Shown: positions 5,649 to 37,153 of the stretch, piece after piece
Layout of the letters: each line of letters opens with the position of its first letter
Position numbering within the stretch: position 1 is the stretch's first letter
The notes under the pieces: generated by a model
Database searches by the model: none
What the model was told of the DNA's origin: nothing
The model's input: only the letters and a program-made list of their open reading frames with translations
Translations under genes and position numbers: made by a program
From: Burkholderiaceae bacterium
Lineage (GTDB): Bacteria > Pseudomonadota > Gammaproteobacteria > Burkholderiales > Burkholderiaceae_D
NCBI GenBank assembly: GCA_019751755.1
Contig: JAIENA010000208.1
Span: forward strand, 1 to 37,153
DNA length: 37,153 nucleotides
Direction of reading: 5' to 3'

Positions 5649-5828
5649 GGGGCCGCATGGTACGCGCAGCCTGTGGGGCTGTCCATCGCTGCGGCAAGCG
5701 CCCTGTGATAAAGTGGCAACGATTTGGCGGGCTGCCCGCGCGCCCGTTGTTGTTGCTTCGTTGTGGCTTCGTTGTCGCTGCGCTCCTTGCTTCGCTTCTT
5801 GCTTCTTATTTCGCGCTGATTTCCCTTC
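5649..5828. promoter_or_regulatory. Divergent intergenic region, ligase / FemAB-like gene
   Basis: This 180-bp gap must hold the promoters of both arms of the exosortase-accessory locus. I see no convincing -35/-10 pair. The plus strand carries a pyrimidine-rich stretch of degenerate short direct repeats built around GCTTCGTTGT and CTTGCTTC (about 5753-5808). The ORFs that cross the region on either strand look like shadows. Confidence 0.35.
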
Positions 5829-6887: not shown

Positions 6888-7138
6888 TGTATTTGCAAGA
6901 AATCAAGACCATCCTGGCTGACACCCTGAGCCTGCCACCAGGCGCGGCCGATGCGCTGACGGCCGAGTCGGCGCTGATGGGCAGTATCCCGGAACTCGAT
7001 TCGATGGCGGTGGTGCAGCTGATCGCCACCCTGGAAGAACAATTCGGTTTTGCCATCGACGATGATGAAATCGACGCCAGCACGTTTGCCACGGTGGGCA
7101 CCCTGGCGGCTTTCGTCCAGCACAAGCTGACCGCATGA
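6887..7138 (+). CDS. Acyl carrier protein, exosortase-A system-associated
   Basis: This 83-residue acyl carrier protein has the phosphopantetheine attachment motif LDSM with Ser39. The acidic helix following it (EEQFGFAIDDDEID) is typical of helix 2-3 of ACPs. It probably carries the acid activated by the divergent ligase. A good ribosome binding site, TTTGGAG, lies 5 nt before the start, and its end overlaps the next gene by ATGA (7135-7138). This ligase/ACP/decarboxylase/FemAB/hydrolase combination is the known accessory set of exosortase-A genomes. Confidence 0.92.
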   Translation: MYLQEIKTILADTLSLPPGAADALTAESALMGSIPELDSMAVVQLIATLEEQFGFAIDDDEIDASTFATVGTLAAFVQHKLTA

Positions 7139-7998
7139 TCGGTTCCGGCGCCACTGCGCCGGCCGCGCCCGCGCTCCCGCCGCCGCTGCCGTTGTTCTTG
7201 CCGGTGGCCGGGCAGGGCGCCCGTTTTTGCCTGTACCACGCGCCGGCCGGAAAGGGCACGGCGGCGCTGGTGTATGTGCATCCGTTTGCCGAAGAAATGA
7301 ACCGCAGCCGCCGTATGGCGGCGCTGGCGGCGCGCGCCCTGGCGGCACGCGGCGTGGCGGTACTGCAAATCGATTTGCTGGGCTGTGGCGACAGCAGCGG
7401 CGATTTCGGCGACGCCAGCTGGGACGCCTGGCGCACCGATGTGCGGCACGCCGTGGCGTGGCTGCGCGAACGCAGTGGCCATGTGCCCGGCCTGTGGGGC
7501 TTGCGCATGGGCGCCTTGCTGGCGCTCGATTGCGCGCGCGAACTGGCCTGCCCGCACCTGCTGCTGTGGCAACCGGTGCACAGCGGCGCCACCGGTCTGA
7601 CGCAGTTCTTGCGCTTGCAACTGGCGGCCGACATGCTGGACCAGCAGTCGGCGGCCCGCAGCACCACGGCGGCGTTGCGGGCCGCGCTGCGCGCGGGGAC
7701 GCCGCAGGAAATCGCCGGCTACACCCTGGCGCCGGCGATGGCCGATGCGCTCGATGCGCTCGACAGTAAAACGCTGGCGCCGCCTTGTCCCACGCACTGG
7801 TTCGAGTTGGCGCCGGAAGCGGGCCGTCCGCTGCCGCCCGCCGGCGCCGCCGTGCTGCAGGCGTGGCAAGCGCAAGGCGCGGTCGTGCAGGCGCAGGTGG
7901 TGGCGGGCCCGCAATTCTGGGCCACGCCGGAAGTGGCCACCAGTGCCGCGCTGCTCGCTGCCACGGCAGCCGTTTTTGGAGCCGGTCATGTTCCATGA
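7135..7998 (+). CDS. Alpha/beta hydrolase-like protein, exosortase-A associated hydrolase 2
   Basis: This 287-residue protein has an alpha/beta hydrolase fold. VYVHPFAEEMNRSRRMAA fits the oxyanion-hole region and VLQIDLLGCGDSSGDFGDASWDAWRTDV the following strand and helix. At the nucleophile elbow the sequence is GLRMGALLA, so the expected Ser of G-x-S-x-G is replaced by Arg-Met. I believe the hydrolase-2 family often reads GLRxGA here, so this may be a non-hydrolytic or unusual member. It starts inside the ACP stop (ATGA) and overlaps hydrolase 1 by 11 bp, so all four genes are coupled. The first 20 residues are Ala/Pro rich and may be a flexible tail. Confidence 0.85.
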   Translation: MIGSGATAPAAPALPPPLPLFLPVAGQGARFCLYHAPAGKGTAALVYVHPFAEEMNRSRRMAALAARALAARGVAVLQIDLLGCGDSSGDFGDASWDAWRTDVRHAVAWLRERSGHVPGLWGLRMGALLALDCARELACPHLLLWQPVHSGATGLTQFLRLQLAADMLDQQSAARSTTAALRAALRAGTPQEIAGYTLAPAMADALDALDSKTLAPPCPTHWFELAPEAGRPLPPAGAAVLQAWQAQGAVVQAQVVAGPQFWATPEVATSAALLAATAAVFGAGHVP

Positions 7999-8992
7999 CG
8001 GCGGCTATCAGGAGCAGGCGCTGGCGTTCCACTGCGATGCGGCGACCTTGCCGGCCATCCTGACGCTGCCCGTGTCGGCGGCGGGGCAAGCGCCGGCCAC
8101 GCGCGGTGTGCTGGTGATCGTTGGCGGGCCGCAATACCGGGCCGGCAGCCACCGGCAATTCACCTTGCTGGCGCGCAGCCTGGCGCAGCAAGGCATTCCC
8201 GTCCTGCGTTTCGATGCGCGCGGCATGGGCGATGGTGAAGGCGAGCCGCGTACCTTTGACGATCTGGCTGACGATGTGCGGGCGGCCACCGATTGTTTCA
8301 TGGGCGCCGTGCCGGGTTTACGTGACGTGGTGCTGTGGGGCTTGTGCGATGGTGCGGCGGCTGCGGTGTTATATGCCGGCAGTGATCAGCGTATCAGCGG
8401 CCTGGTGTTGCTCAATCCGTGGGCGCGCGATGAGGCGGGGTTGGCGAAAGCCATGCTAAAACACTATTATCTGCGCCGCCTGGCGGATCCCGCGCTGTGG
8501 CGCAAAGTGTTCAGTGGCCGTTTTGACGTGCGGGGATCCGCCGCCTCGCTGGCGCTGCACATTGGTCGAGCGTTGCGGCCAAGCGCCAAGCCGCCGTTGG
8601 CCGGGATCGAACCGGCTGGCGCCGTGTCGGCCCCGGATCCCATGTCGACCGTCGCACCGGCGGCGACACCGCCCGTATCGGCTGCCGCGAGGCCACCGGC
8701 GCCGACCGCTGCGCTGCCATCCATCCCGGCCGTTGCTGCGCCGCCACTTGGCCCGCGCTTGTATGCGGGCCTGCAGCGCTTCCAGGGCCAGGTGCTGCTG
8801 GTGATCAGTCCTGGCGACCTGACCGCCATGGAGTTCCTGGACCTGGCCGGCAGCAGCCGGGCCTGGCGCACGCTGATGCGTGCGCCGCGCATCACGCGCC
8901 GCGACGTTCCCGGCGCCGACCACACGTTTTCGAGCCGGGCCTGGCGCGACCAGGTCGCCGAATGGACTGGACAGTGGCTGCGCTCGTGGTAA
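7988..8992 (+). CDS. Alpha/beta hydrolase, exosortase-A associated hydrolase 1
   Basis: This 334-residue alpha/beta hydrolase has the conserved segments GVLVIVGGPQYRAGSHRQFT, VLRFDARGMGDGEG, and a nucleophile elbow LWGLCDGAAA, implying a Cys nucleophile. The tail DVPGADHTFSSRAWRDQV holds the likely catalytic His. The frame is open upstream from 7745, but the real start is ATG 7988, preceded by GGAG at 7978-7981 and overlapping hydrolase 2 by 11 bp. An Ala/Pro-rich insert of about 60 residues (8578-8755, around residues 197-256) interrupts the domain between the lid region and the strand LLVISPGDL. It looks like a disordered linker and is longer than I expect for the family. Confidence 0.87.
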   Translation: MFHDGGYQEQALAFHCDAATLPAILTLPVSAAGQAPATRGVLVIVGGPQYRAGSHRQFTLLARSLAQQGIPVLRFDARGMGDGEGEPRTFDDLADDVRAATDCFMGAVPGLRDVVLWGLCDGAAAAVLYAGSDQRISGLVLLNPWARDEAGLAKAMLKHYYLRRLADPALWRKVFSGRFDVRGSAASLALHIGRALRPSAKPPLAGIEPAGAVSAPDPMSTVAPAATPPVSAAARPPAPTAALPSIPAVAAPPLGPRLYAGLQRFQGQVLLVISPGDLTAMEFLDLAGSSRAWRTLMRAPRITRRDVPGADHTFSSRAWRDQVAEWTGQWLRSW

Positions 8993-9020
8993 ATTACTGC
9001 AGGAAATATTCGGAGATCAC

Positions 9021-9749
9021 ATGAAATATCTACCTGCGCTGGCGGCGATGTGCCTGCTGGCCACCGCAGCCGCTCCGGCGCTGGCTGCGCCTAAAATTTG
9101 TGGCGTGTTCGACGAGCCCGCCGCGTTATCTGATTACCGTAAAGGCCGGACGGAATTTGCTGTCAGGCTGGCGCAAGTCGAACGCTCCTCGTTTTCGCCG
9201 GACGTGGAAAGTGGCGCCATCGGCATGGCGGCCGTCAGTGGGCTGGACGCCACGCTGGCGGCGTTCCCCAACCATGTGCCGGCATTGAATGCCCTGACGC
9301 GCCTGGCGCTGAAGGAAAAGCGCGCCAAGTTGCCGGGCATGAAGTTTCCGGTGGAATGCTATTACGACCGCGCCCAGCGCTTTGCGCCCGACGATGCGGC
9401 GGTCTATGCCGCCTATGCCGCCTACCTGCTGGGCCTGGGATTGAACGACAAGGCGGTCGAAATGTACGTGCGGGCGGTGGAGCTCGACGGCAGGAATGTC
9501 GTGATCCATTACAACCTTGGCCTGGCGTATTTCAAGCTGAACAATTATGAGCTGGCCAATAAGTATGCGCAGCGCGCGTACAACGCCGGCTTCCCCCTGC
9601 CGGGCTTGCGCAGCCTGTTGCAAAACGCGGGCAAATGGCGCCACATGCCGGATGAGAAAATGCCGCCACCACCGTTGCCCGAAGGCGCCGAGCCCGAGTT
9701 GGCGCCCGCACCGGAACCGCTGCCGGCGCCCGCGCCAGTGAAGGAGTAA
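9021..9749 (+). CDS. Secreted TPR-repeat protein of unknown function
   Basis: This 242-residue protein has a clear Sec signal peptide (MKYLPALAAMCLLATAAAPALAAPK, cleavage after ALA). After a region with one Cys pair (CGVF and VECYYD), the section from about residue 110 to 190 is TPR-like: ALNALTRLALKEKRAK, AAVYAAYAAYLLGLGLNDKAVEMYVRAVELDG, VIHYNLGLAYFKLNNYELANKYAQRAY. It ends in a Pro/Ala/Glu-rich tail that may be disordered. CGGAGA at 9011-9016 supports the ATG at 9021; the longer open frame from 8880 is not needed. It follows hydrolase 1 by 28 bp and precedes a small secreted protein by 3 bp, so it is probably in the same transcript. No specific function is recognised. Confidence 0.8.
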   Translation: MKYLPALAAMCLLATAAAPALAAPKICGVFDEPAALSDYRKGRTEFAVRLAQVERSSFSPDVESGAIGMAAVSGLDATLAAFPNHVPALNALTRLALKEKRAKLPGMKFPVECYYDRAQRFAPDDAAVYAAYAAYLLGLGLNDKAVEMYVRAVELDGRNVVIHYNLGLAYFKLNNYELANKYAQRAYNAGFPLPGLRSLLQNAGKWRHMPDEKMPPPPLPEGAEPELAPAPEPLPAPAPVKE

Positions 9750-23577: not shown

Positions 23578-23724
23578 CCATGAATGGCGGTGTTGCATGA
23601 TGTGGTGAGCTGGTCACTTTTCGCCAGCGACCGCTTGTTCAGTGGCGGCGGCTGGATTACAGTCGGGTTGTTGCTATATCGGTATATATTAGCGCCGCCC
23701 TGTGCGGGCCGGGGAGTAGGCACT

Positions 23725-24480
23725 GTGGCACGCTGGTCCGTCTGGATTGCACTGACACTGATACTGGTTGGCCGCTGCGCCGATGCGGCTGACCTCACGG
23801 TCGGCTTCAATATCGACCGTCCCCCCTATGTCTACCTCGATGCCGCCGGCAGCGTGGCCGGGATCGAAGTCGAGGTGGCGCGCGCGGTGCTGGCCCGGCT
23901 CGGGTATGGCATGAAAAGTCGCGCGCTGTCGAAATCACGCATGCTGCCCGCGCTGAAAGGGCGGCAGGCCGACATCATCATGTCGGTGCATGGCCGTGAT
24001 GAGCCGGGCGTGTATTACTCGGACGGGGTGGTGGAATACTGGAATATTGCCGTCAGCCGCCAGGCCGATCGCATCCGCCTGGCCAGCGCTGCCGACCTTG
24101 ACCAGTACCGCTTTGTCATCTGGCAGCGTGGCTGGGCCGACCTGGGGCCGGCGTTTGCCGCGCGCTACCGGCCCGATGCGCAGGGCCGTTTCCGCAATAA
24201 TTACTTCCAGAGCAGTACCCAGGATGCCCAGGCGCGCGTGTTCTGGGCGCGTCGGGTCGAGGTGATGGTGGTGGACCGCCTGGTCTTCCAATGGTATCGG
24301 CGCCAACTGGCCGCGACCATGAACACCGACGACGACGTGGACTACCACAATATTTTCCCTCACCCCACCGTGTTTGCCGCCGCCCTGGCCGACCGCGACC
24401 TGCGCGACCGCTTCAACGCCGCCCTGAAGGCCATGCGCGCCGACGGCGGCTACCAAAACATCGTCAACCGCTATCCCTAA
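23725..24480 (+). CDS. Periplasmic substrate-binding protein, family 3-like (orphan)
   Basis: This 251-residue protein has a signal peptide (WSVWIALTLILVGRCADAADL). A bacterial extracellular solute-binding family 3 domain follows: LTVGFNIDRPPYVYLDAAGSVAGIEVEVARAVLARLGY, then PALKGRQADIIMSVHGRDEPGVYYSDGVVEYWNIAVS, and a final FNAALKAMRADGGYQNIVNRY. The frame is open upstream to 23584. I choose GTG 23725 because GGGGAG (23711-23716) precedes it and the signal peptide begins there. No permease or ATPase is adjacent. It might be a stand-alone sensor protein; ligand unknown. It is the second such orphan here (see 15325-16209). Confidence 0.75.
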   Translation: MARWSVWIALTLILVGRCADAADLTVGFNIDRPPYVYLDAAGSVAGIEVEVARAVLARLGYGMKSRALSKSRMLPALKGRQADIIMSVHGRDEPGVYYSDGVVEYWNIAVSRQADRIRLASAADLDQYRFVIWQRGWADLGPAFAARYRPDAQGRFRNNYFQSSTQDAQARVFWARRVEVMVVDRLVFQWYRRQLAATMNTDDDVDYHNIFPHPTVFAAALADRDLRDRFNAALKAMRADGGYQNIVNRYP

Positions 24481-24947: not shown

Positions 24948-27900
24948 ATGAGCATCGTCACCAGCCTGACTACGTTGCAGATTGCTAATTTATCGACTTT
25001 GCAGATTGCCGGTCTCGCTACCGCCGATATCGCGGGTTGGAACACCGAACAGTTCGGTGCGTTGACCACGGATCACATGGGGGTCTTCACTACTGCGCAA
25101 ATCCCTGCGTTCACCTCGAACCATTTGGCCAACGCCCTGTCGACGGCCCAGGCGGCCGCGATGACGTCGACCCAGCTGAACGCCATGACCAGCGCCCAGG
25201 CTGCCGCGCTGAACTCGGATGCCTTGGCCGCGTTTGAAACGTCGGACATCGTCGGCCTCAAGACCACCGCGATTGCCGCGCTGAAATCGTCGCAGCTGTC
25301 GGCCATGACCACCGAGCAGGTCGCCGCGCTGGGCACCAACCAGGTGGCGGCGCTGACCACCTTGCAACTGTCGACCGGCTTTGCCACCAACCAGATCGTG
25401 GCCCTGAACTCGACCCAGGCTGCCGTGCTGAGCTCGGCCCAAGTGGCAGCGCTGACCTCCGACTCCATCGCCGCGATGGAAACGGAAGACTTTTCCGTCC
25501 TGAAAACGTCGGCCATCGGCGGCCTGAAAACGGTCCAGCTGTCGGTTCTGACCACCGACCAGATCGTTTCGCTCAATACCCAGCAAGTGTTCGCCCTGGG
25601 CAGCGCCCAGACCGGCGCACTGGCCACCAATGTGCTGGCCGCGATGGAAACCAACGACTTGGCCGCGCTTAAGAGCAGCGCCGTGGTTGGCTTGACTTCC
25701 GATCAGGTTAGCGCACTGACCACCGACCAGGTTGGCGCACTGACGACTGGCCAGATTGCTGGCATGAGCACCAATCAGCTGGCCAATGGCTTGCTGACCA
25801 ACCAGGTGGCGGCCCTGTCGTCGAGCCAACTGGGCGCCTTGTCGACCACCCAATTCGCTTCGCTGTCGAGCGACGCGATCGCCGCGATTGAAACCGCCGA
25901 CCTGGCCGGCCTGAAATCGTCCCAGATCGCCGCGCTGAAAACCGTGCAGGCTGCCGGCCTGACGACCGACCAGGTTGCCAACCTCGGCACCAACCAGATT
26001 GTCGCGCTGAGCACCAACGTGGTGGCCAACGCCCTGAATACCCAGCAAGTGGCCGCCCTGACCAGTTCCCAGGCTGCCGTGCTGAGCTCGGCTCAGGTGT
26101 CGGCGCTGACCTCCGACGCCATCGCCGCGATGGAAACGGAGGACTTCTCTGTCTTGAAGACCAACGCCATTGCCGGCCTGAAAACCGCCCAGCTGTCGGC
26201 CCTGACCACCGACCAGGTGGCGTCGATGTCGACCCAGCAAGTTGCCGCCCTGGGCAGCGCGCAGATGGCTGGCTTCAGCACCAGCGCGCTGGCCGCGATG
26301 GAAACCAATGACCTGGCCGCGCTGAAAACCAGCGCGCTGACGGGCCTGACCTCCGATCAGGTGGCCGGCCTGACCACCGACCAGGTGGGCGCCCTGACCA
26401 CGTCGCAAATGGCGGCGCTGACCACCAACCAGCTGTCGAACGGTATGTCGACGCTGCAAATCCAGTCGCTGTCGTCGATCCAGCTGGGTGCGCTGTCGAC
26501 CACGCAATTTGCTTCGCTGTCGAGCGACGCGATTGCCGCGATTGAAACCACCGAAATCGTCGGCCTGAAGACCACCGTGATCGCCGCGCTGAAAACGGTG
26601 CAGGTGGCCGGCCTGACGACCGACCAGATCGCCAACCTGGGCACCAACCAGGTTGTCGCGCTGACCACCAACGCGCTGGCCAATGGCTTCGCCACCAACC
26701 AGATCGCCGCCCTGACCAGCACCCAGGCTGCCGTGATGAGCTCGCAGCAAATCGCGAACTTGACGTCGGACCAGCTCGCCGCGATGGAAACGGACGACTT
26801 CTCGGTCTTGAAAACCAGCGCGATCGCCGGCCTGAAAACCGCCCAGCTGTCGGCCCTGAACACTGACCAGGTGGTGTCGATGTCGACCGCCCAGGTCGCT
26901 GCCCTGAGCAGCGCGCAAATGGCCGGCTTCAACACCGCCGCGCTGGCCGCGATGGAAACCAACGACGTGGCCGTGTTGAAAACCAACGCGATTGCCGGCC
27001 TGACGACCGACCAGGTGGCCGCCCTGACGACCGACCAGATCGGCGCCATGACGTCCGCGCAAGTGGGTGGCATGACCACCAACCAGCTGGCCAACGGCTT
27101 GTCGACGCTGCAAGTGCAGGCGTTGACCTCGATCCAACTGGGTGCGCTGTCCACTCTGCAATTCTCGTCGTTGACGTCGGATGCGATCGCCGCGATTGAA
27201 ACCTCGGATATCATCGGCCTGAAGACCACCGTGATCGCCGCCATGAAAACGGTGCAGATCGCCGGCCTGACGACCGACCAGGTTGCTAACCTGGGCACCA
27301 ACCAGGTCGTTGCGCTGACCACCAACGCGCTCACCAACGGCTTCGCCACCAACCAGATCGTTGCCCTGAGCAGCACCCAGGCCGCAGTGATGAGCTCGCA
27401 GCAAATCGCGAACCTGACCTCGGACCAGATCGCCGCGATGGAAACGGACGACTTCTCGGTCTTGAAAACGAGCGCGATTGCCGGCCTGAAAACCGCGCAA
27501 CTGTCGGCCCTGAACACCACGCACGTGGTGTCGATGTCGACCCAGCAAGTCGCCGCCCTGAGCAGCGCCCAAATGGCCGGCTTCGGCACCGACGCGATCG
27601 CCGCGCTCGAAACGCAAGATCTGGCCGCACTGAAAACCAGCGCGATTGCTGGTTTGACGACCGACCAGGTTGGCGCCATCACGACCGACCAGATCAGCAA
27701 CATGACGTCGTCGCAGATCGCCGCGATGACCACCAACCAGATCACCAACGGCCTGAACACCGCGCAAGTGGTGGCCATGACCTCGACCCAACTGGCCGGC
27801 CTGTCCACGCTGCAATTCGCCGCGCTGACCTCGGACGCCATCGCCGCGATTGAAACCACCGACATCATCGGCCTGAAAACCACCGTGATCGCCGCGATGA

Positions 27901-30900
27901 AAACGGTGCAAGTGGCCGGCCTGACGACCGACCAGATCGCCAACCTGGGCACCAACCAGGTTGTCGCGCTGACCACCAACGCGCTGGCCAATGGCTTCGC
28001 CACCAACCAGATCGCCGCCCTGACCAGCACCCAGGCCGCCGTCTTGAGCTCGCAGCAAGTGTCGAACCTGACGTCCGACCAGATCGCCGCGATGGAAACC
28101 GATGATTTCTCGGCCCTGAAAACGAGCGCGATTGCCGGCCTGAAAACCGCACAACTGGCGGCCCTGAACACCACGCACGTGGTGTCGATGTCGACCCAGC
28201 AAGTCGCCGCCCTGAGCAGCGCCCAAATGGCCGGCTTTGGCACCGACGCGATCGCCGCGATCGAAACGCAAGATCTGGCCGCATTGAAAACCAGCGCGAT
28301 CGCTGGTTTGACGACCGACCAGATTGGCGCCATCACGACCGACCAGATCGGCAACATGACGTCGTCGCAGATCGCCGCGATGACCACCAACCAGATCACC
28401 AACGGCTTGAACACCGCGCAAGTGGTGGCGATGACCTCGACCCAGCTGGCTGGCCTGTCCACGCTGCAATTCGCCGCGCTGACCTCGGACGCGATCGCCG
28501 CGATTGAAACCACCGACATCATCGGCCTGAAAACGACCGTGATCGCCGCCATGAAAACGGTGCAGGTGGCCGGCCTGACGACCGACCAGATCGCCAACCT
28601 GGGCACCAACCAGGTTGTCGCGCTGACCACCAACGCGCTGGCCAATGGCTTCGCCACCAACCAGATCGCCGCCCTGACCAGCACCCAGGCTGCCGTGATG
28701 AGCTCGCAGCAAATCGCGAACTTGACGTCGGACCAGATCGCCGCGATGGAGACCGAAGACTTCTCGGCCCTGCGCACGGTGGCGATTGCCGGCCTGAAAA
28801 CCGCGCAACTGTCGGCCCTGAATACCGATCACGTGGTGTCGATGTCGACCCAGCAGGTGGCCGCCCTGAGCAGCGCCCAGATGGCCGGCTTCAGTACCAC
28901 TGCCATTGCCGCGATGGAAACCCAAGACCTGGCCGCGCTGAAAACCAACGCCATTGCTGGCCTGACCACCGACCAGGTGACCGCCATCACGACCGAGCAG
29001 ATCGGCAACATGACGTCGTCCCAGATCGCCGCGATGACGACCAACCAGATCGCCAACGGCCTGACCACCGCGCAAGTGGTGGCCATGACCTCGACCCAAC
29101 TGGCTGGCCTGTCCACGCTGCAATTCGCCGCGCTGACCTCGGACGCCATCGCCGCGATTGAAACCACCGACATCATCGGCCTGAAAACCACCGTGATCGC
29201 CGCGATGAAAACGGTGCAAGTGGCCGGCCTGACGACCGACCAGATCGCCAACCTGGGCACCAACCAGGTTGTCGCGCTGACCACCAACGCGCTGGCCAAT
29301 GGCTTCGCCACCAACCAGATCGCCGCCCTGACCAGCACCCAGGCTGCCGTGATGAGCTCGCAGCAAATCGCGAACTTGACGTCGGACCAGATCGCCGCGA
29401 TGGAGACCGAAGACTTCTCGGCCCTGCGCACGGTGGCGATTGCCGGCCTGAAAACCGCGCAACTGTCGGCCCTGAATACCGATCACGTGGTGTCGATGTC
29501 GACCCAGCAGGTGGCCGCCCTGAGCAGCGCCCAGATGGCCGGCTTCAGTACCACTGCCATTGCCGCGATGGAAACCCAAGACCTGGCCGCGCTGAAAACC
29601 AACGCCATTGCTGGCCTGACCACCGACCAGGTGACCGCCATCACGACCGAGCAGATCGGCAACATGACGTCGTCCCAGATCGCCGCGATGACGACCAACC
29701 AGATCGCCAACGGCCTGACCACCGCGCAAGTGGTGGCCATGACCTCGACCCAACTGGCCGGCCTGAATACGCTGCAATTCGGTGCGCTGACCTCGGACGC
29801 CATCGCCGCGATTGAAACGGCGGACATCATTGGCCTGAAAACCACCGTGATTGCCGCACTGAAAACCGTGCAGGTGGCGGGCCTGACGACCGACCAGATC
29901 GGCGCCCTGGGCACCAACCAGGCGGTCGCATTGTCCACCAACGCACTGACCAACGGCTTTAACACCGCCCAGATCGTTGCGCTGAACACGTCGCAGGCTG
30001 CCGTCCTGAGCTCGCAGCAAGTGGCGAATCTGACCTCTGACCAGATTGCCGCGCTGGAAAGCGACGACCTGGCGGTGCTGAAAACCTCGGCGATCGCCGG
30101 ACTGAAGACGGCCCAGTTGTCGGCCCTGAACACTGCGCAAGTGGTGGCGCTGGCCACCAGCCAGATGGCCTCGCTGTCGAGCGCCCAGATGGCGGGCTTT
30201 AGCACCACTGCCGTGGCCGCACTGGAAACCGATGACTTGGGCGCGCTGAAATCGTCCGCAGTGATCGGCCTGACGTCCGACCAGATCGCAGCGATCACGA
30301 CCGACCAGATCGGGACGCTGAAAACCAACCAGGTAGTGGCGCTGACCACCAACCAGTTGGCCAACGGCCTGTCCACCGCACAAGTGGCGGCGATGGCATC
30401 GAACCAGTTGGCGGCGCTGAGCACGCTGCAGTTCGCTGCGCTGACCTCCGACCAGGTGGGCGCGATCGATACCGATGACATCAGCGTGCTGAAGACCACC
30501 GTGATCGCCGCACTGAAGACCGTGCAGATCGCCGGCCTGACGACCGCACAGATCGGCGCGCTGGGTACCAACCAGGCCGTCGCGCTGTCCACCAATGCGC
30601 TGGCGAATGGCTTCAACACCGCCCAGATCGTTGCGCTGACCAGCACCCAGGCTGCGGTGCTGAGCTCGACGCAAGTGGCTGCGCTGAGCTCCGACTCGGT
30701 CGCGGCGCTGGAAACCGATGACTTCTCGGCCCTGCGCACGGTGGCGATTGCCGGCCTGAAAACGGCCCAGCTGTCGGCCCTGACCACTGACCAGGTGGTG
30801 TCGATGACCTCGGCCCAGGTGGCGGCCCTGACCAGCGCCCAGATGGCCGGCTTCAGCACCGCCGCGATTGCCGCGCTGGAAACGGCTGACCTGGCGTCAC

Positions 30901-32015
30901 TGAAAACCACGGCGATCGCCGGCCTGACCACCGACCACGTGGCCGCGCTGACCAGCGACCAGCTGGCAGGCATGACGACGCAACAGTTCGCCGGCTTGAG
31001 CAGTGTCCAGATCAAGGCGCTGACCACGCTGCAGATCTCGCAGATCGAGACCCAGGACTTGGCGGCACTGAAGACCGCGACGATCCGCGCGTTGACCACC
31101 GACCAGGTGATCGGCATCACCACGCTGCAGATCTCGACCCTGGCCAGCGCGCAAGTGTGCGCCTTGACCTCGGATCAGATCCAGGCCATGACCACGGACC
31201 AGATCGGCGCCTTCCACAGCCCGTTCTACACCCCGATCGTGCTGGACCTGGGCAACAACGGCATCGATACCCTGGCCTACAGCGCAGGTGTCGAGTTCGA
31301 CATGCTGGCCAATGGCGCCAAGGCAGGCACCGGCTGGGTGGGTGGCGGCGACGGCTTGCTGGCCCTGGATCGCAACGGCAATGGTTCCATCGATGATGGT
31401 TCCGAACTGTTCGGCTCCGGCACCACGCTGGCCAACGGCCAGAAAGCCGGCAACGGTTACCAGGCCCTGGCTGAACTGGACAGCAACGGCGACGGCGCCA
31501 TCACCAGCGCGGATGCCGCCTTCGGCGACCTGCGTGTGTGGGTGGATGGCAACGCCGACGGCATCAGCTCGGCAAGCGAACTGAAATCGCTGGCGGATCT
31601 GAACATCAGCAAGCTGAACCTGAACGGCAAGTCCGATGTGTCGCTGAACAACGGCAATATCGTGGGCATGACCTCGACCTACGAAACCGCCGATGGCCAG
31701 ACCCACGCGGCAGCCGACGTCTGGTTCGCCGGCAGCAACGTGACGCCGGGTGCAGCCGACCTGCGCGGCAACGTCAGCGGCCTGGTGCAGTCGATCTCGT
31801 CCTTCGGCAGCGCGGCGCCAGTGGCGACCGGTTCGCTGACGCTGGAAGCCGGCGGCAACGTCAGCAGCAGTGTGGCGAACCTGGCGGCAGCGATCAGCCA
31901 GTTCGACGCGACCAAGCTGAACGGTGCGGCGGATCTGGCGGCAAGCGACAGCGACCTGCGTCTGAAGGCCCTGTCGAGCAGCGCCGGCCTGGGTGGCATT
32001 CTGGCTGCGAAGTAA
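24948..32015 (+). CDS. Giant octapeptide-repeat protein with C-terminal calcium-binding, T1SS-like domain
   Basis: This is a 2355-residue protein. After a 6-residue prefix MSIVTS it consists of about 258 tandem octapeptides (residues 7-2088), consensus L-[ST]-[ST]-x-Q-[VIL]-x-[AG], with 9-residue variants at fixed places and no signal peptide. From residue 2089 (FHSPFYTPIVLDLGNNGIDTL) the sequence changes. A domain follows with WVGGGDGLLALDRNGNGSIDDGSELFG (loop at Asp2141), DSNGDGAITSAD (Asp2178) and DGNADGISSASE (Asp2200), which are EF-hand-like calcium loops. Such C-termini are known from FrpC-like and other type I secreted proteins, so export by a type I system as a surface or biofilm adhesin is the best guess. 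No secretion genes are in the window. Only one Cys (AQVCAL) is present. It ends before a very strong terminator. The exact function is unknown. Confidence 0.85.
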   Translation: MSIVTSLTTLQIANLSTLQIAGLATADIAGWNTEQFGALTTDHMGVFTTAQIPAFTSNHLANALSTAQAAAMTSTQLNAMTSAQAAALNSDALAAFETSDIVGLKTTAIAALKSSQLSAMTTEQVAALGTNQVAALTTLQLSTGFATNQIVALNSTQAAVLSSAQVAALTSDSIAAMETEDFSVLKTSAIGGLKTVQLSVLTTDQIVSLNTQQVFALGSAQTGALATNVLAAMETNDLAALKSSAVVGLTSDQVSALTTDQVGALTTGQIAGMSTNQLANGLLTNQVAALSSSQLGALSTTQFASLSSDAIAAIETADLAGLKSSQIAALKTVQAAGLTTDQVANLGTNQIVALSTNVVANALNTQQVAALTSSQAAVLSSAQVSALTSDAIAAMETEDFSVLKTNAIAGLKTAQLSALTTDQVASMSTQQVAALGSAQMAGFSTSALAAMETNDLAALKTSALTGLTSDQVAGLTTDQVGALTTSQMAALTTNQLSNGMSTLQIQSLSSIQLGALSTTQFASLSSDAIAAIETTEIVGLKTTVIAALKTVQVAGLTTDQIANLGTNQVVALTTNALANGFATNQIAALTSTQAAVMSSQQIANLTSDQLAAMETDDFSVLKTSAIAGLKTAQLSALNTDQVVSMSTAQVAALSSAQMAGFNTAALAAMETNDVAVLKTNAIAGLTTDQVAALTTDQIGAMTSAQVGGMTTNQLANGLSTLQVQALTSIQLGALSTLQFSSLTSDAIAAIETSDIIGLKTTVIAAMKTVQIAGLTTDQVANLGTNQVVALTTNALTNGFATNQIVALSSTQAAVMSSQQIANLTSDQIAAMETDDFSVLKTSAIAGLKTAQLSALNTTHVVSMSTQQVAALSSAQMAGFGTDAIAALETQDLAALKTSAIAGLTTDQVGAITTDQISNMTSSQIAAMTTNQITNGLNTAQVVAMTSTQLAGLSTLQFAALTSDAIAAIETTDIIGLKTTVIAAMKTVQVAGLTTDQIANLGTNQVVALTTNALANGFATNQIAALTSTQAAVLSSQQVSNLTSDQIAAMETDDFSALKTSAIAGLKTAQLAALNTTHVVSMSTQQVAALSSAQMAGFGTDAIAAIETQDLAALKTSAIAGLTTDQIGAITTDQIGNMTSSQIAAMTTNQITNGLNTAQVVAMTSTQLAGLSTLQFAALTSDAIAAIETTDIIGLKTTVIAAMKTVQVAGLTTDQIANLGTNQVVALTTNALANGFATNQIAALTSTQAAVMSSQQIANLTSDQIAAMETEDFSALRTVAIAGLKTAQLSALNTDHVVSMSTQQVAALSSAQMAGFSTTAIAAMETQDLAALKTNAIAGLTTDQVTAITTEQIGNMTSSQIAAMTTNQIANGLTTAQVVAMTSTQLAGLSTLQFAALTSDAIAAIETTDIIGLKTTVIAAMKTVQVAGLTTDQIANLGTNQVVALTTNALANGFATNQIAALTSTQAAVMSSQQIANLTSDQIAAMETEDFSALRTVAIAGLKTAQLSALNTDHVVSMSTQQVAALSSAQMAGFSTTAIAAMETQDLAALKTNAIAGLTTDQVTAITTEQIGNMTSSQIAAMTTNQIANGLTTAQVVAMTSTQLAGLNTLQFGALTSDAIAAIETADIIGLKTTVIAALKTVQVAGLTTDQIGALGTNQAVALSTNALTNGFNTAQIVALNTSQAAVLSSQQVANLTSDQIAALESDDLAVLKTSAIAGLKTAQLSALNTAQVVALATSQMASLSSAQMAGFSTTAVAALETDDLGALKSSAVIGLTSDQIAAITTDQIGTLKTNQVVALTTNQLANGLSTAQVAAMASNQLAALSTLQFAALTSDQVGAIDTDDISVLKTTVIAALKTVQIAGLTTAQIGALGTNQAVALSTNALANGFNTAQIVALTSTQAAVLSSTQVAALSSDSVAALETDDFSALRTVAIAGLKTAQLSALTTDQVVSMTSAQVAALTSAQMAGFSTAAIAALETADLASLKTTAIAGLTTDHVAALTSDQLAGMTTQQFAGLSSVQIKALTTLQISQIETQDLAALKTATIRALTTDQVIGITTLQISTLASAQVCALTSDQIQAMTTDQIGAFHSPFYTPIVLDLGNNGIDTLAYSAGVEFDMLANGAKAGTGWVGGGDGLLALDRNGNGSIDDGSELFGSGTTLANGQKAGNGYQALAELDSNGDGAITSADAAFGDLRVWVDGNADGISSASELKSLADLNISKLNLNGKSDVSLNNGNIVGMTSTYETADGQTHAAADVWFAGSNVTPGAADLRGNVSGLVQSISSFGSAAPVATGSLTLEAGGNVSSSVANLAAAISQFDATKLNGAADLAASDSDLRLKALSSSAGLGGILAAK
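24966..31211 (+). repeat. Octapeptide repeat array with a 654-bp (27-unit, 218-residue) super-repeat
   Basis: The basic unit is 24 bp. A block of 27 units (25 of eight residues, two of nine) makes a 654-bp super-repeat. The anchor LGTNQ (GGCACC or GGTACC at 25332, 25986, 26640, 27294, 27948, 28602, 29256, 29910, 30564) recurs at exactly 654 bp eight times with no indel. Copies: 25305-25958, 25959-26612, 26613-27266, 27267-27920, 27921-28574, 28575-29228, 29229-29882, 29883-30536, and a final copy from 30537 that has lost three units. The array starts mid-period with units 14-27 (24966-25304). In each period the nine-residue units are numbers 4 and 21, and acidic E-T-x-D units are numbers 8, 15 and 25, each usually followed by an L-K unit. 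Confidence 0.95.
28566..29757 (+). repeat. Nearly identical pair of super-repeat copies
   Basis: By direct reading, 28566-29103 is identical to 29220-29757 (538 bp, offset 654). Just before the block the two copies differ at several bases. The segment 29109 to about 29345 instead matches 27801 to about 28037 (offset 1308), so the array is a mosaic. Confidence 0.85.
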
Positions 32016-32159: not shown

Positions 32160-35100
32160 ATGTTTACGCTTTCGACAATGAGAACTGACCAGTTGGCCAG
32201 TATGACCATCCTGCAAATGGCGGGATTGAGCAGTTCTGAGCTGGCAACACTGAGCACTACTCAGTTGCGCCTGTTTTCGGCGGCGCAAATCGGTGCGCTG
32301 TCAACGAATGCGATTGCGAACCTCAGCACCCATCACGTGACGGCGCTGAGCGCGACGCAATTGGGCGGCGTGCAATCGGCCCAGATCGGTGCGCTGACGT
32401 CGCTGCAGGCGTCGCTGCTCGATACCACGCAGGCCGGGGCGCTGTCGGCGGCGGCCGTGGTCGGCCTGGCGCCAACCGGCGCGGCGGGACTGAAAAATAC
32501 CGTGCTGGCGGTGTTCTCGGCCAGCCATCTGGCGGGCTTGAAAACCGCCACCATCGCGGCTCTGCGCAGTGACCAGGTGGCGGCCATCGATGACACGCTG
32601 GTCGCGGCCTTGACCACGGCGCAAGCCGCGGCGCTGGGCAGCATGCAATTGGCCGGACTCGATGCCAGCGCGATTGCCGCGCTGGAGCTGGCCGATGTCG
32701 CGGCGCTGCGCCCGGCCACCGTGGCGGCGTTCAGCAATACACAATTGGCCGCGCTGGGCGCGACTCGCTTTGCCGCTCTCACCACCGCGCAAACCGCGGC
32801 GTTGAATACCGTGCAACTGGCGCAGGGCGTGACGACGAACCAGGTGGCGGCATGGAATACCGCGCAAGCGGCGGTCTTGAACAGTGCGCAACTGGCGGCC
32901 CTGCCGGCGGCCTCGCTGGCGGCGCTGCCGACGCAGCTGATTGCCGCCTTGAAACCTGTGACACTGGCCGCATTGACGTCGGCGCAGGCCGGCGGCTTGT
33001 CCGCTGTGCAGGTGGCGGCGCTGACCACGGCGCAGGCCGCTGCGCTGGGCAGCGCCTCGGTGCGCGCGCTGGGTGCCAGCGGCATTGCCGCGCTGGAAAG
33101 CATCGACCTGGCGGCGTTGAAAACCCAGGCCATCGCCGGCTTGTCGTCGGAGCAGGTGGCGGCGCTCGATAGCGCCCAGGTCCGGGCCCTGAAGACATCA
33201 CAAATTGCCGCGCTGGGCACGCTGCAACTGGCGCAAGGCTTTGACATCGGCCAGGCCGCCGGGTTGACGCCGGCGCAATTTGCCGCGTTGAGCGCCGCGC
33301 AATTCGATGCGCTGCCGGACGATTTATACACGGTGCTGGACACGGCCGACGTGCGGGCGTTGCCGCTGGCGGCGCTTGGCCGCCTGTCGTCGGCCGATCT
33401 GGCGCACTGGAGCAATACCCAGTTGCAGGCCTTGAGTACGGCGCAACTGGTGAGCCTGGCGTCGACCGCCCTGGCCGGCCTGTCCGCCAGCCAGGTGGGC
33501 AGCTTGGGCACCGCGCAAGTGGCACGCCTGGTGCCATCGGCGCTGGCCATGCTGTCGACCGCGGCGCTGGCGGGCTTGACCAGCCAGCAAATTGCCGCCA
33601 TCAGTCCCGCCACCCTGACCGCGTTGCCGACCGCGCAGTTGGCGCGCCTGGATACCGCGCAGATCGTGGCCCTGACGACGGCCCAGGTCGCCGCCTTCAA
33701 AACCAGCCACCTGGCCGCGTTGAGCACGGCGCAACTGGCGGCGTTGGAAACCCGCGACCTGGCCGCCTTACCGGCCGCCACCTTCGTTGGCATGAGCACG
33801 GCGCAACTGGCGTCGCTCAGCACGGCGGCCATGCGGGTCATGTCGCCGGCCCAAGTGGCGGCGCTGACCTCGGTGCAATTGCAATACGGACTCAGTACCG
33901 CCCAACTGGCGGCCTGGACCACCGCGCAACTGGCCGTGCTGTCCGTGCCCCAGGTCAGTGTTCTGCCGGGCGCGGCGCTGGTCGCTATCAGTGGCTTGAA
34001 ACCGTCGTCGGTTGCCGCGCTGTCGTCGGTGCAGGTGGCGGACTTGTCCACCAGCCAACTGGCGTCGCTGAACACGGCGCAAATCGTGGCACTGACCACG
34101 GCGGCGCTGGCTGGCTTGTCGGGCGAGCAGTTGGTGGCGCTGACGGGCGCGCAAGCCGGTGCGCTGACCGCACTGCAATGGAACAGTTTGCCGCTGGAAG
34201 TCTTGGCCAGCCTGGGCAGTGAAGAAATCTCCGCGCTGAAGCCGGCCGTGCTGAATGCACTGAATAGTACTTTCCTGGCCGGCCTCGACAGCATGCAAGT
34301 CCGTGCGCTCACCACCTTGCAGGCGGCGGCGCTGGGCAGCACCCAGTTGGCCGCGCTGGGCGCGGCGGGACTGGCCGTCATGGACACCGTGGATATTGCC
34401 GCGCTGGCCGCCGCCGCGCTGGGCAAACTCGACCCGGCGCTGTTGCAAGCCTTGCCCAGTGCCTCGCTGCGGGCGCTGACCACGGCGCAACTGACGGCGC
34501 TGACCACCGCGCAACTGGCCGGCTTGTCGAGCAGCCAGCCTGCCGTGCTCAGTTCGCAGCAAATCGCGGCATTGAGTTCCACCCAGTTTGCGGCGCTGCC
34601 GGGCAGCCCGGCTGACTTCCTCGGCACGGCCGCGCTGGCCGGCCTGAAACCGGGCTTGCTGGCGGCCTTGTCGTCGGCTGAACTGGCGGCGTTTGGCACG
34701 CACCAGATTGCCGCGCTGGGGTCGGCGCAATTGGCGGCGCTGCCCAGCATCAGTATTGTGGGCTTGAGCTCGGAGCAGGTACGCGCGTTCAACAGCGCGC
34801 AATTGAGCGTCCTGCCGGCGTCGGTGCTGGGCTACCTGTCGACCGCCGCGATTGCCGCGTTGGACAGCCGCCAGCTCGGTTATCTGCCGCTGACGGCGCT
34901 GGCGGCGCTGAGCTCGGCGCAACTCGCGGCCTTTGGCACGCAACAACTGGTGGCGCTGACCACGGCGCAAGCGGCGTCGCTGACGTCGCGTCAGCTGGCC
35001 GCGCTGGACAGCGCGGACCTGGCTGTGCTGGAAACCGCCGACTTTGCCGTGCTGCAGGCCAGTGTCTTGGCGATGCTGTCGTCCAGCCAACTGGCCGGCC

Positions 35101-37153
35101 TGGGGACCGCCCAGGTGCGGGCGTTGACCAGTGTCCAGTTGGCCGCGCTGTCGACCGCACAATGGGCCGCCGGTTTCACCAGCAGCCAGTTGGCGGCGCT
35201 GACGCCGGCCCAACTGTCGGCCTTGAACAGCGCGCAATTTTCCGCCTTGCCGGGCGGCCCGCTGGCCTACCTCAGTACGGCGGCGATCCGTGAATTGAAG
35301 GCCGTCATGCTGGCGGCGCTGGCCTCGCAGCACGTGGCGCAACTGACATCCGAACAATTGGGGGCGTTGCGCAGCGACCAGATCGGCGCGCTGTCCACGG
35401 CCGGGATTGCCGGTTTCGATCATGCCCAAGGCGGGCAACTCAATTCCCAGCAAGTCGGCGCATTGAGCCCAATGCAAGTGGCGTTCTTGTCCACCGCCGC
35501 GCTGTCCGGCATGAATACGGCGCAAATCGGCTGGATCAAGCCGCTGACGGTTGCCGGTTTAACGTCGAAACAGTTGAACGCGCTCGACGAGGCGGCGCTG
35601 GTCGCGTTGACCACCGCGCAAGTGGCCGCACTGACCAGCACGCAAGTGGCGGCGCTGGCCAGCGACGCGTTGCTGGCGCTGGAAACCAATGACTTTGCTG
35701 CCCTGAAGCCGAATGTGATTGCCGCGCTGTCGACCGCGCAATTGCGCGCGCTGGACGCCGAAGCGCTGACTGCGCTGACGCCGCTCCAACTGGCCGCGTT
35801 GACCACGGCGCAAATGGCTGGCGGCGGCCTTGGCACGGAACAGTTGGTGATGTTGACGACGGCCCAATTGGGCGCCTTCAGCAGTACGCAATTTGCCGCG
35901 CTGCAAACGGCGCCAGCCTCGTTCCTTGGGCGCGACACGATTGTCGGCCTGAAGCCTGCACTGTTGGCGGCCTGGCATTCCGGGCAAGTGGCGGCGCTGT
36001 CGGGCGACCAGTTTTCCGGTCTGACACCGGCGCAAATCCTGGCGTTTTCGCCGGCCGGCCTGGCCGGTCTGACGTCCGCCGCGCTGGACGGGTTGTATGC
36101 GCTGCAGGCCGCCGCGCTGACCTCGGTCCAGTTGCGGGCCTTGTCCACGGCGGCGCAGGCGGGATTGTCGCAAGAGATGCTGGCCCTGTTGAAACCGGCT
36201 GCGCTGGCTGGTTGGACCACCCAGCAGATGACGGCCCTGACGCTGGACCAGATTTATGCGCTGACTACCGCGCAGGCGGCGGCACTTGATGCAGTGCAAG
36301 TGGCGGCGCTGGGCACGGAGGCCGTGTCTGCGCTGGAATTGGCAGACGTGATGGCATTGCGCACCTCGGCTATTGCCGCGCTGTCGACGGCACAGATTGC
36401 TGCACTCGATATTAACCAAGTCAGTGTGCTGACACCCGCGCAATGGGCGGCGTTGACCACTGCCCAGCTGGTGAATGGCCTGGATGCAGCGGAGTATGCT
36501 TCCCTGAATTCGCAACAGCTGGGGGCGCTGAACAGCAGGCAATTCGCTGCGCTGTCCACGGCCGCCATCGCTGTCTTGCCGGGGATCGCGCTGACCGGTG
36601 TGAAGCCGGCGGTTGTGGCGACCTGGACTTCGCAGCAAATCAATGTGCTGCATGAGGGGGCGCTGACCTCCTTGAAAGGGGAGCAGTTCGCAGCGTTGTC
36701 GAGCTCGGTCATGGCGGGGCTGGCCACCCGCCATGTGGCTGAAATGACGCTCAGCCAAGTCAACGCGATGTCCGCGCTGCAACTGAATGCGCTGCCCACC
36801 GCAACCATGGCGCAATTCGACGCTTACCTGCTGGAAGGATTGAACACGGCTGCCATGGCGGGACTGAAGGCGGAGCAGGTCGCGCAATGGAGTGAAGTCG
36901 CTCTGCAGTCACTGTCAACCAGGCAATTTGCGGCCATGACGTCGCAGCAAGTCCGCGGTCTGACCACGCTGGCGATTGCCTCCCTGGAAAGCCAGGATGT
37001 GGCGGCGATACGGTCTTCGGCAATTGCCGGGCTGAGTACCAGCCAGATGGCTGCGCTGGACGCTTCTTCGCTGCGGGCCCTGACCCCGGGGCAACTGGCG
37101 GCACTGAGCACGGTACAACTGGCGCAGCTGTCGTCAGCGCAAATCGGCGGTTT
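32160..37153 (+). CDS. Giant octapeptide-repeat protein, paralogue 2 (3' end outside window)
   Basis: This protein is open for at least 1664 codons and cut by the right edge. After a 6-residue prefix (MFTLST) the octapeptide repeat begins with MRTDQLAS, the same layout as the upstream gene. Units are more varied, with many Ala, Pro and Gly substitutions (for example LPAASLAA, LKPGLLAA). The 27-unit period is nevertheless kept: the nine-residue Gly units appear at 32817, 33228, 33879, 35163, 35814 and 36468, with spacings 411, 651, 1284, 651 and 654 bp. There is no signal peptide, and no C-terminal domain is reached. The ribosome binding site is weak; ATG 32178 (MRTDQ) is an alternative start. 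It is probably exported like its neighbour; function unknown. Confidence 0.85.
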   Translation, partial: MFTLSTMRTDQLASMTILQMAGLSSSELATLSTTQLRLFSAAQIGALSTNAIANLSTHHVTALSATQLGGVQSAQIGALTSLQASLLDTTQAGALSAAAVVGLAPTGAAGLKNTVLAVFSASHLAGLKTATIAALRSDQVAAIDDTLVAALTTAQAAALGSMQLAGLDASAIAALELADVAALRPATVAAFSNTQLAALGATRFAALTTAQTAALNTVQLAQGVTTNQVAAWNTAQAAVLNSAQLAALPAASLAALPTQLIAALKPVTLAALTSAQAGGLSAVQVAALTTAQAAALGSASVRALGASGIAALESIDLAALKTQAIAGLSSEQVAALDSAQVRALKTSQIAALGTLQLAQGFDIGQAAGLTPAQFAALSAAQFDALPDDLYTVLDTADVRALPLAALGRLSSADLAHWSNTQLQALSTAQLVSLASTALAGLSASQVGSLGTAQVARLVPSALAMLSTAALAGLTSQQIAAISPATLTALPTAQLARLDTAQIVALTTAQVAAFKTSHLAALSTAQLAALETRDLAALPAATFVGMSTAQLASLSTAAMRVMSPAQVAALTSVQLQYGLSTAQLAAWTTAQLAVLSVPQVSVLPGAALVAISGLKPSSVAALSSVQVADLSTSQLASLNTAQIVALTTAALAGLSGEQLVALTGAQAGALTALQWNSLPLEVLASLGSEEISALKPAVLNALNSTFLAGLDSMQVRALTTLQAAALGSTQLAALGAAGLAVMDTVDIAALAAAALGKLDPALLQALPSASLRALTTAQLTALTTAQLAGLSSSQPAVLSSQQIAALSSTQFAALPGSPADFLGTAALAGLKPGLLAALSSAELAAFGTHQIAALGSAQLAALPSISIVGLSSEQVRAFNSAQLSVLPASVLGYLSTAAIAALDSRQLGYLPLTALAALSSAQLAAFGTQQLVALTTAQAASLTSRQLAALDSADLAVLETADFAVLQASVLAMLSSSQLAGLGTAQVRALTSVQLAALSTAQWAAGFTSSQLAALTPAQLSALNSAQFSALPGGPLAYLSTAAIRELKAVMLAALASQHVAQLTSEQLGALRSDQIGALSTAGIAGFDHAQGGQLNSQQVGALSPMQVAFLSTAALSGMNTAQIGWIKPLTVAGLTSKQLNALDEAALVALTTAQVAALTSTQVAALASDALLALETNDFAALKPNVIAALSTAQLRALDAEALTALTPLQLAALTTAQMAGGGLGTEQLVMLTTAQLGAFSSTQFAALQTAPASFLGRDTIVGLKPALLAAWHSGQVAALSGDQFSGLTPAQILAFSPAGLAGLTSAALDGLYALQAAALTSVQLRALSTAAQAGLSQEMLALLKPAALAGWTTQQMTALTLDQIYALTTAQAAALDAVQVAALGTEAVSALELADVMALRTSAIAALSTAQIAALDINQVSVLTPAQWAALTTAQLVNGLDAAEYASLNSQQLGALNSRQFAALSTAAIAVLPGIALTGVKPAVVATWTSQQINVLHEGALTSLKGEQFAALSSSVMAGLATRHVAEMTLSQVNAMSALQLNALPTATMAQFDAYLLEGLNTAAMAGLKAEQVAQWSEVALQSLSTRQFAAMTSQQVRGLTTLAIASLESQDVAAIRSSAIAGLSTSQMAALDASSLRALTPGQLAALSTVQLAQLSSAQIGG
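32178..37153 (+). repeat. Diverged octapeptide array of the second giant gene
   Basis: Tandem 24-bp coding units continue to the window edge with no unique spacer between them. DNA identity between units is low, but protein phase is constant. Acidic units recur at the same period positions as in the first gene (for example LELADVAA, LDTADVRA, LETRDLAA, MDTVDIAA, LETADFAV, LETNDFAA), often followed by an L-K unit. One copy has lost five residues at period position 25 (ISGLKPSS, near 33991). Confidence 0.85.

What the first reader, a model, noticed from the sequence alone, without database searches (positions are those of the whole stretch)
24948..32015. Giant protein built from octapeptides in an exact 654-bp super-repeat
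About 258 octapeptides (L-[ST]-[ST]-x-Q-[VIL]-x-[AG]) are ordered into 27-unit blocks, and nine anchors sit exactly 654 bp apart over 5.2 kb with no indel. That two-level order resembles ice-nucleation proteins (octapeptide with higher-order periods), but the consensus is different. The unit could be a short capped helix (S/T-x-x-Q capping box) in a solenoid, or one face of a beta-solenoid with T/S-T/S ladders. I recall no named family with this 27-unit architecture.
Basis: partly seen in the sequence, partly recalled or inferred. Interest (0 to 1): 0.85.

Follow-up and report, generated by a model that had tools for sequence, protein, structure and literature searches.

The report
Giant screw-like protein of tiny helices
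A bacterium related to Pseudoduganella carries a gene for a 2,355-residue protein made of 258 eight-residue repeats ordered in a 27-repeat super-pattern; the repeats are predicted to form one tiny helix each, and the whole likely stacks into a long exported rod whose super-pattern would reflect the pitch of a screw.

Summary
In detail: ORF 24948-32015 (2355 aa) holds 258 consecutive octapeptides, with nine anchors exactly 654 bp apart. The family is named: Pfam PF20080, ALTTAQ repeat (1412 bits). The C-terminus is a FrpC self-processing-module homologue with Thr where FrpC's cleaved Asp-Pro bond has Asp, so self-cleavage is not expected. In two Pseudoduganella genomes the gene sits beside a second ALTTAQ gene and a type I secretion ABC/HlyD pair.

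New here: 27 octads is one word of a grammar. Across 37 related proteins, acidic E-T-x-D octads are 7 or 10 octads apart in 610 of 1010 gaps (shuffled mean 9%). The window's block reads 7-10-10; a sister class reads 7-10 (17 octads). 7, 10, 17 and 27 are near whole turns of a screw of about 3.4 octads per turn, so the super-repeat probably records helix pitch and keeps a charged stripe on one face. Pitch, export and fibre/adhesin function are inferred; four of 37 proteins mostly break the rule.

The parts
24948..32015 (+). ORF of the giant ALTTAQ-repeat protein, 2355 aa
   Evidence: PF20080 1412.1 bits, 72 stretches
24966..31211 (+). 258 consecutive octapeptides (residues 7-2088), some units of nine residues; one short helix per octad predicted for the parts modelled (residues 1-440 and the last dozen octads)
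   Evidence: segmentation; AF2 models; DSSP per octad position
25476..30722 (+). Span of nine anchors of the 654-bp (27-octad) super-repeat
   Evidence: anchor positions; autocorrelation
31233..31742 (+). Homologue of the FrpC self-processing module (residues 2096-2265), EF-hand-like loops kept, Thr instead of Asp before the Pro
   Evidence: 6sjw E 1.4e-37, alignment, paralogue/orthologue alignment, Foldseek 6sjw prob 1.00, TMt 0.79
31743..32012 (+). C-terminal tail ending GGILAAK, low confidence in the model; possible secretion signal (inference)
   Evidence: pLDDT under 50 for most of it; similar ends in paralogues
32160..37151 (+). Second ALTTAQ gene, 1664 aa seen, open at the contig end; no exact super-repeat, top octad lags 27, 17, 7
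   Evidence: its contig C491 ends at 37153
23584..24480 (+). Upstream gene, solute-binding protein family 3 (PF00497), also upstream in L014

Best explanation
The gene encodes an ALTTAQ-repeat (PF20080) protein whose 258 octapeptides are predicted to form one short helix each and would stack into a long, stiff, screw-like alpha-solenoid, likely exported by a type I secretion system and likely used as an extracellular fibre or adhesin stalk. Shown: the repeat family, the 27-octad period, the C-terminal FrpC-type module with Thr-Pro in place of Asp-Pro, and type I secretion genes beside two orthologues. Predicted: the helix per octad (modelled for residues 1-440 and the last dozen octads, extended to the rest). 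Inferred: about 3.4 octads (27 residues) make one turn, so 7, 10, 17 and 27 octads are near whole turns (2, 3, 5, 8); gains and losses of those lengths keep the acidic E-T-x-D octads and the K octads after them on one face, and block amplification in such steps lengthens the rod without breaking the stripe. Inferred: after export the C-terminal module would fold on binding Ca2+ and start or cap the folding of the rod; without the Asp it would not cut itself or cross-link. Rod length would be roughly 75 nm (258/3.4 turns at about 1 nm per layer, recalled spacing).
For: Family. Helix per octad: mean pLDDT 95.2, pTM 0.81; 52 of 53 octads with four or more helical residues in a row; the C-terminal model also starts with a row of short helices. 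A 120-residue solved chain 'HeliScrew4' (9zem), mostly L-[ST]-P-[ED]-[QK]-[IVF]-A-A octads, matches residues 1459-1558 at E 1.1e-13. Pitch: the mean octad-lag profile of 37 proteins (clipped at +-0.06) is positive only at 7, 10, 17, 20, 27, 34 and 37 of lags 1-40; the best single period for lags 1-26 is 3.38 octads, r 0.65. 610 of 1010 gaps between E-octads are 7 or 10, against a shuffled mean of 8.8% and a maximum of 11.4% in 200 shuffles. E-octads have D at position 5 in 97%; K follows at position 2 of the next octad in 45%. Block steps: orthologues are 218 and 219 residues shorter. Export: C39-like/ABC and HlyD genes directly follow in L014 (Pfam) and, by ORF, in L015; C516 of the own genome begins inside an ALTTAQ gene followed by such a pair; ABC and HlyD genes are also near ALTTAQ genes in L017 (Rhodobacteraceae) and, with an outer-membrane channel, L021 (Pseudomonas). 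Spread: the C-terminal module is found in 57 of 60 genomes of the genus, own included.
Against: I could not read model coordinates, so the pitch is from sequence alone. In P0001 alone the strongest frequency is about 9 octads, not 3.4; the mean charge spectrum of the 37 proteins peaks first at 9.0, then 5.4, and only third at 3.38 octads (all are harmonics of 27), and octad positions 5, 6 and 8 peak at 5.4, 2.44 and 2.46. Lags 3, 14, 24 and 31, also near whole turns, are not positive. 198 of 1010 E-octad gaps are 1-6. Four of 37 proteins (L017, L020, L021, L022:1-2154) have 28% or fewer gaps of the allowed lengths; three more have 50-60%. Gaps are pseudo-replicated: after collapsing spans at 50% identity, 47 of 156 are 7 or 10. 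The 37 proteins were not a random draw. In one search, only 8 of 52 PF20080 proteins peaked at 3.36-3.42. VIA ranges against a designed armadillo protein suggest about 29 residues per turn rather than 27 (6s9o; 42 residues per ARM repeat recalled). No secretion, binding or surface data. Two ORFs scanned beside L020 gave no T1SS match; the neighbours of L016, L013 and L009 were not scanned for one.
Confidence: 0.62

Rival explanations
1. The 27- and 17-octad periods are only relics of unequal crossing-over in a repeat gene; the solenoid is real, but the lengths carry no structural meaning.
For: Middle blocks look like recent copies: W5-W7 are 92-96% identical, G5-G7 88-93%. DNA and protein identity at one block step are alike (0.745 and 0.757). 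The preferred lags could all descend from one old 7- and 10-octad duplication.
Against: The same few lags recur in proteins without long exact blocks, such as P0002 and L013, and in other proteobacterial groups. Gaps of 8, 9, 11-16 and 18 octads between E-octads are rare (36 of 1010).
Confidence: 0.25
2. A beta-solenoid, perhaps ice-binding or ice-nucleating, with T/S ladders.
Against: AF2 gives helices and no strand for residues 1-440 at mean pLDDT 95; no ice-nucleation match among Pfam hits at E<=1.
Confidence: 0.03
3. A Ca2+-triggered clip-and-link protein like FrpC, which cuts itself and attaches the repeat rod to neighbouring proteins.
For: C-terminal module matches FrpC SPM structures (6sjw), Pro kept, EF-hand-like loops kept.
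Against: The residue before the Pro is T in 25 and S in 5 of the 30 ALTTAQ proteins in which the motif pattern was found (39 examined, two of them duplicates). The reported chemistry uses the Asp side chain (PMC7078468, passages).
Confidence: 0.07
4. A soluble secreted or cytoplasmic scaffold that uses the groove of the solenoid to bind partner proteins, as armadillo proteins and mesothelin do, rather than a fibre or adhesin stalk.
For: The nearest folds found are mesothelin and armadillo proteins.
Against: Type I secretion genes next to the orthologues; varying block number fits a length-tunable surface rod better (inference).
Confidence: 0.2

Closest known systems
Pfam PF20080 ALTTAQ repeat
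   Same: Same octapeptide; 1412 bits, cut-off 26.4.
   Different: The Pfam model is 38 residues long and cannot show the 27-octad block or the 7/10 spacing. No paper in the held library contains 'ALTTAQ' or, from 2015 on, 'PF20080'.
HeliScrew4, PDB 9zem
   Same: Solved 120-residue chain of similar octads, E 1.1e-13.
   Different: Only 120 residues, mostly Pro at octad position 3; I saw its sequence, not its structure, title or origin, and found no paper with the name. It is not among the 50 fold matches shown (library to 2026-04-08).
Mesothelin (and armadillo/HEAT solenoids)
FrpC self-processing module (6sjw, 6sjx)
   Same: Sequence and predicted fold of residues 2096-2265.
   Different: Thr replaces the Asp of the cleaved Asp-Pro bond.
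Type I-secreted giant adhesins (SiiE; LapA recalled)
   Same: Giant repetitive protein next to ABC and HlyD genes; no obvious signal peptide by eye (not tested).
   Different: SiiE is a chain of 53 immunoglobulin-like domains (start of abstract); this one is predicted as one continuous row of short helices.

Membership tests
PF20080 ALTTAQ repeat | Match to the curated model above its gathering score | tested here: met
   1412.1 bits, cut-off 26.4, 72 stretches
FrpC-type self-processing module (clip-and-link) | Homology to the SPM domain | tested here: met
   6sjw E 1.4e-37; Foldseek prob 1.00, TMt 0.79
FrpC-type self-processing module (clip-and-link) | Asp-Pro bond at the N-terminal edge | tested here: not met
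   Thr-Pro in the window, L014, L015, C516; Ser-Pro in L011
FrpC-type self-processing module (clip-and-link) | EF-hand-like Ca2+ loops | tested here: met
   By sequence only: D-x-N-x-N-G and related loops aligned with 6sjw; Ca2+ binding not measured
RTX proteins | Glycine-rich nonapeptides (PF00353) | tested here: not met
   No such match in P0001 at E<=1; some other ALTTAQ proteins carry PF00353
Type I secretion substrate | ABC and HlyD genes adjacent | tested here: met
   Adjacent to the orthologue pair in L014 and by ORF in L015; C516 of the own genome; in the window itself the contig ends before them
Type I secretion substrate | Secretion shown by experiment | not testable with these tools
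   -
Ice-nucleation proteins | Match to the family model and beta-solenoid fold | tested here: not met
   Not among Pfam matches at E<=1; all-helical model of residues 1-440
Mesothelin / ARM-HEAT solenoids | Fold match over most of the model | tested here: inconclusive
Screw of about 3.4 octads per turn (my proposal) | Pitch measured on coordinates | not testable with these tools

The most novel reading that the evidence does not exclude
ALTTAQ proteins of this kind are built on a two-letter grammar of 7- and 10-octad words (two and three turns of a screw of about 3.4 octads per turn). The 27-octad (7-10-10) and 17-octad (7-10) super-repeats are two tilings that approximate the same non-integer pitch, so that an acidic/basic stripe runs along one face of a length-tunable extracellular rod: the gene's repeat lengths are a readable record of a protein's helical pitch.
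Probability: 0.5. Interest if true: 0.75.

Novelty: new variant of a known kind. Interest (0 to 1): 0.6.

Why it matters
If the pitch reading holds, exact super-repeats in solenoid genes can be used to read helical geometry from DNA, which is testable at once on coordinates. It would also define a class of type I-secreted surface rods made of one continuous screw of tiny helices instead of bead-like domains. Proteins with the same C-terminal module are in 57 of 60 genomes of this genus, yet no paper was found under the repeat's name or Pfam accession. The array changes length in 218-residue steps, which makes it a modular scaffold.

Tried and rejected
Beta-solenoid and ice nucleation: rejected. 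Other hits of the repeats, HTH_25 (61.7 bits, cut-off 24.6) and LRR_EndoS (48.5, cut-off 27.9) in P0001 and P0002, CAAP1 in P0002, and below their cut-offs SAM_DprA and FldB, also LRR proteins of the PDB: some pass the cut-off as a sum, but for HTH_25 and LRR_EndoS in P0001 no single stretch passes; I took them as echoes of L-x-x-L patterns, not relatives. Thr/Ser-Pro as a special mark of ALTTAQ proteins: rejected, because of 175 parsed non-ALTTAQ SPM domains only 35 have D-P, with 43 S-P, 24 T-P, 20 A-P, 16 P-P and 37 other pairs (200 domains in all, 17 without the motif, 8 in ALTTAQ proteins of which 6 T-P and 2 parsed at another place). In one search one PF20080 protein, P0007, has Ala at a motif match. 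A first spectrum over 52 mixed PF20080 proteins peaked at period 2 in the mean, from subfamilies with 16-residue alternation; 8 of 52 peaked at 3.36-3.42. So the 3.4 signal is a property of the set fetched by similarity to this protein, not of all PF20080. The seven non-mesothelin Foldseek rows at E<=0.001 have prob 0.35-0.63 and TM of 0.18 or less. In the block matrix the L015 blocks appear out of register and were not used. Paper searches were seen as listings only, apart from passages of PMC7078468 (found, read) and PMC10035497 (read).

Dropped rows: L001-L008 and L023-L034 (pieces) were left out; L035 gave two proteins of the same length and period as those of L015 (its contig has the same length, 111201) and was dropped, 39 to 37 proteins. 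Several of the 37 are fragments or run off their contigs (for example L010, L018, L019, L022, P0002). The 20 stretches were picked by hand for long frames and spread of genomes, not at random. The list was cut ('more matches are not listed').

Full report
Check of the observation. ORF 24948-32015 is real and whole. The 8-residue and 218-residue periods and the exact 654-bp spacing of nine anchors are confirmed. Two units of each block have nine residues, so 27 x 8 + 2 = 218. The nine-residue sites split the block into 137 and 81 residues, that is 17 and 10 units.

What it is. The repeat is Pfam PF20080, ALTTAQ repeat (1412 bits; second gene 670 bits). NCBIfam has nothing above a cut-off. No paper with 'ALTTAQ', 'HeliScrew' or, from 2015, 'PF20080' is in the held library. 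A solved chain named HeliScrew4 (9zem, 120 aa) matches residues 1459-1558 at E 1.1e-13; I saw its sequence in the alignment, not its structure or title, and that it is a designed protein is only my guess.

C-terminus. Residues 2096-2265 match the FrpC self-processing module (6sjw 1.4e-37; aligned). The AF2 model of the last 367 residues is weaker (mean 68.2), but it finds 6sjw at prob 1.00, TM by target 0.79. FrpC cuts its Asp414-Pro415 bond on Ca2+ binding and links the Asp to a lysine (PMC7078468, passages). Here the residue before the Pro is Thr; in the four other proteins aligned it is Thr, Thr, Ser, Thr. Among 39 ALTTAQ proteins examined (two of them duplicates) the motif pattern was found in 30, with T 25 and S 5. 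Among wider homologues non-Asp residues are also common (140 of 175 parsed), so this is not special to ALTTAQ proteins. I read the module as a Ca2+-folded end domain without clip-and-link activity (inference).

Neighbours and export. Upstream lie uvrA, ssb and a solute-binding protein gene. Downstream is a second ALTTAQ gene cut by the contig end. The own genome has further ALTTAQ genes on C440, C516, C461 and C431. In Pseudoduganella ginsengisoli (L014) and P. rivuli (L015) the order is: P0001 orthologue, P0002 orthologue, C39-like/ABC gene, HlyD gene (Pfam for L014, where a solute-binding gene also lies upstream). ABC and HlyD genes also lie near ALTTAQ genes in a Rhodobacteraceae MAG (L017) and, with an outer-membrane channel, in Pseudomonas fluvialis (L021). 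The ABC protein's C39 match starts at profile position 14; from recalled motifs the catalytic Cys seems absent, as in RTX transporters. Two ORFs beside L020 gave no match; the neighbours of L016, L013 and L009 were not scanned for secretion genes.

Evolution of the blocks. Orthologues have 2137 and 2136 aa against 2355, 218 and 219 fewer. End blocks pair across species (W1-G1 83%, W2-G2 80%, W9-G8 75%), while W5-W7 are 92-96% alike and G5-G7 88-93%; W8 is an exception, closer to G5-G7 (87-89%) than to W7 (85%). So the array seems to grow and shrink by whole blocks in its middle.

The 7/10 grammar. Relatives show periods of 216-218 residues (27 octads) or 134-136 (17 octads). By octad lag, the top lag is 27 in 23 and 17 in 9 of 37 proteins; the other five top lags are 37, 34, 24, 10 and 7. 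The mean lag profile, clipped at +-0.06, is positive only at 7, 10, 17, 20, 27, 34 and 37, all sums of 7 and 10. One octad type carries this: E at position 2 (or D with an acidic or N position 5), with D at position 5 in 97%, often followed by a K octad (45%). Gaps between such octads are 7 (270) or 10 (340) in 610 of 1010 cases; the sums 17, 20, 27, 34 and 37 add 154; gaps of 1-6 make 198. Shuffled octads give 8.8% for 7 or 10, at most 11.4% in 200 shuffles. With spans collapsed at 50% identity, 47 of 156 are 7 or 10, and 94 of 156 are in the whole set. P0001 reads 10, then 7-10-10 eight times, then 7-7. Of 230 nine-residue units with an E-octad within 14 octads, 173 have it exactly five octads on.

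Interpretation. 7/2 = 3.50, 10/3 = 3.33, 17/5 = 3.40, 27/8 = 3.375. The 17-octad class and the 27-octad class thus share a frequency near 0.294-0.296 per octad, and the best single period for lags 1-26 is 3.38 octads (r 0.65). In the charge spectra proteins of the 17 class such as L013, L017, L020, L051 and L054 peak at 3.39-3.41, while proteins of the 27 class mostly peak at 9.0 or 5.4, with 3.38 as the third peak of the mean; 3/27, 5/27 and 8/27 are harmonics of one block and the spectrum alone cannot choose. I infer a screw of about 3.4 octads (27 residues) per turn, on which E-octads fall along one face. Against it: P0001 alone peaks near 9 octads; lags 3, 14, 24, 31 are not positive; positions 5, 6 and 8 prefer other periods; L017, L020, L021 and L022:1-2154 often use gaps of 3-6 octads; and VIA ranges against a designed armadillo protein hint at about 29 residues per turn.

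Function. Most likely a long, stiff extracellular rod, exported through the adjacent type I system, folding with Ca2+ at its C-terminal module, with a charged stripe for lateral or surface contact. The module is in 57 of 60 genomes of the genus (own included), with one to seven matches each where present. The adhesin or matrix role is inferred from analogy with type I giant adhesins (recalled).

Verdict. A member of a known repeat family with a higher-order architecture for which I found no description in the searches named above. The finding is sound; its claim of no named family is not.

Noticed in passing
window 32160-37151 and contig ends: Four contig ends of this draft genome (C491 end, starts of C516, C461, C431) lie inside ALTTAQ genes, so the repeats probably broke the assembly.
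   Followed up: partly
window 1-9749: TPR protein, PLP-dependent decarboxylase, AMP-ligase, GNAT-type protein, alpha/beta hydrolases: by recall an exosortase/exopolysaccharide-type cluster.
   Followed up: no
L009:2389-10608: ALTTAQ protein of 2739 aa with a 134-residue period (two short of 17 octads), beside flagellar-type genes by their N-terminal sequences (recalled); its longest octad run is only 42.
   Followed up: partly
L021:2-18391: Pseudomonas fluvialis ALTTAQ ORF of 6129 aa, open at its start, with E-octads often at 5-5-7 spacing (sum 17), near ABC, HlyD and outer-membrane channel genes.
   Followed up: partly
proteins P0025, P0052, P0056, P0058-P0060 and others: Other PF20080 proteins alternate every second octad (16-residue period) and prefer lags such as 4, 6 and 10: a different subfamily, perhaps with another pitch.
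   Followed up: no
P0036, P0040, P0064, P0112 and others: PF20080 arrays share proteins with PF00648 (calpain-type, recalled), LysM, filamentous-haemagglutinin (PF05860) or G8 domains: the octad array is used in many architectures.
   Followed up: no
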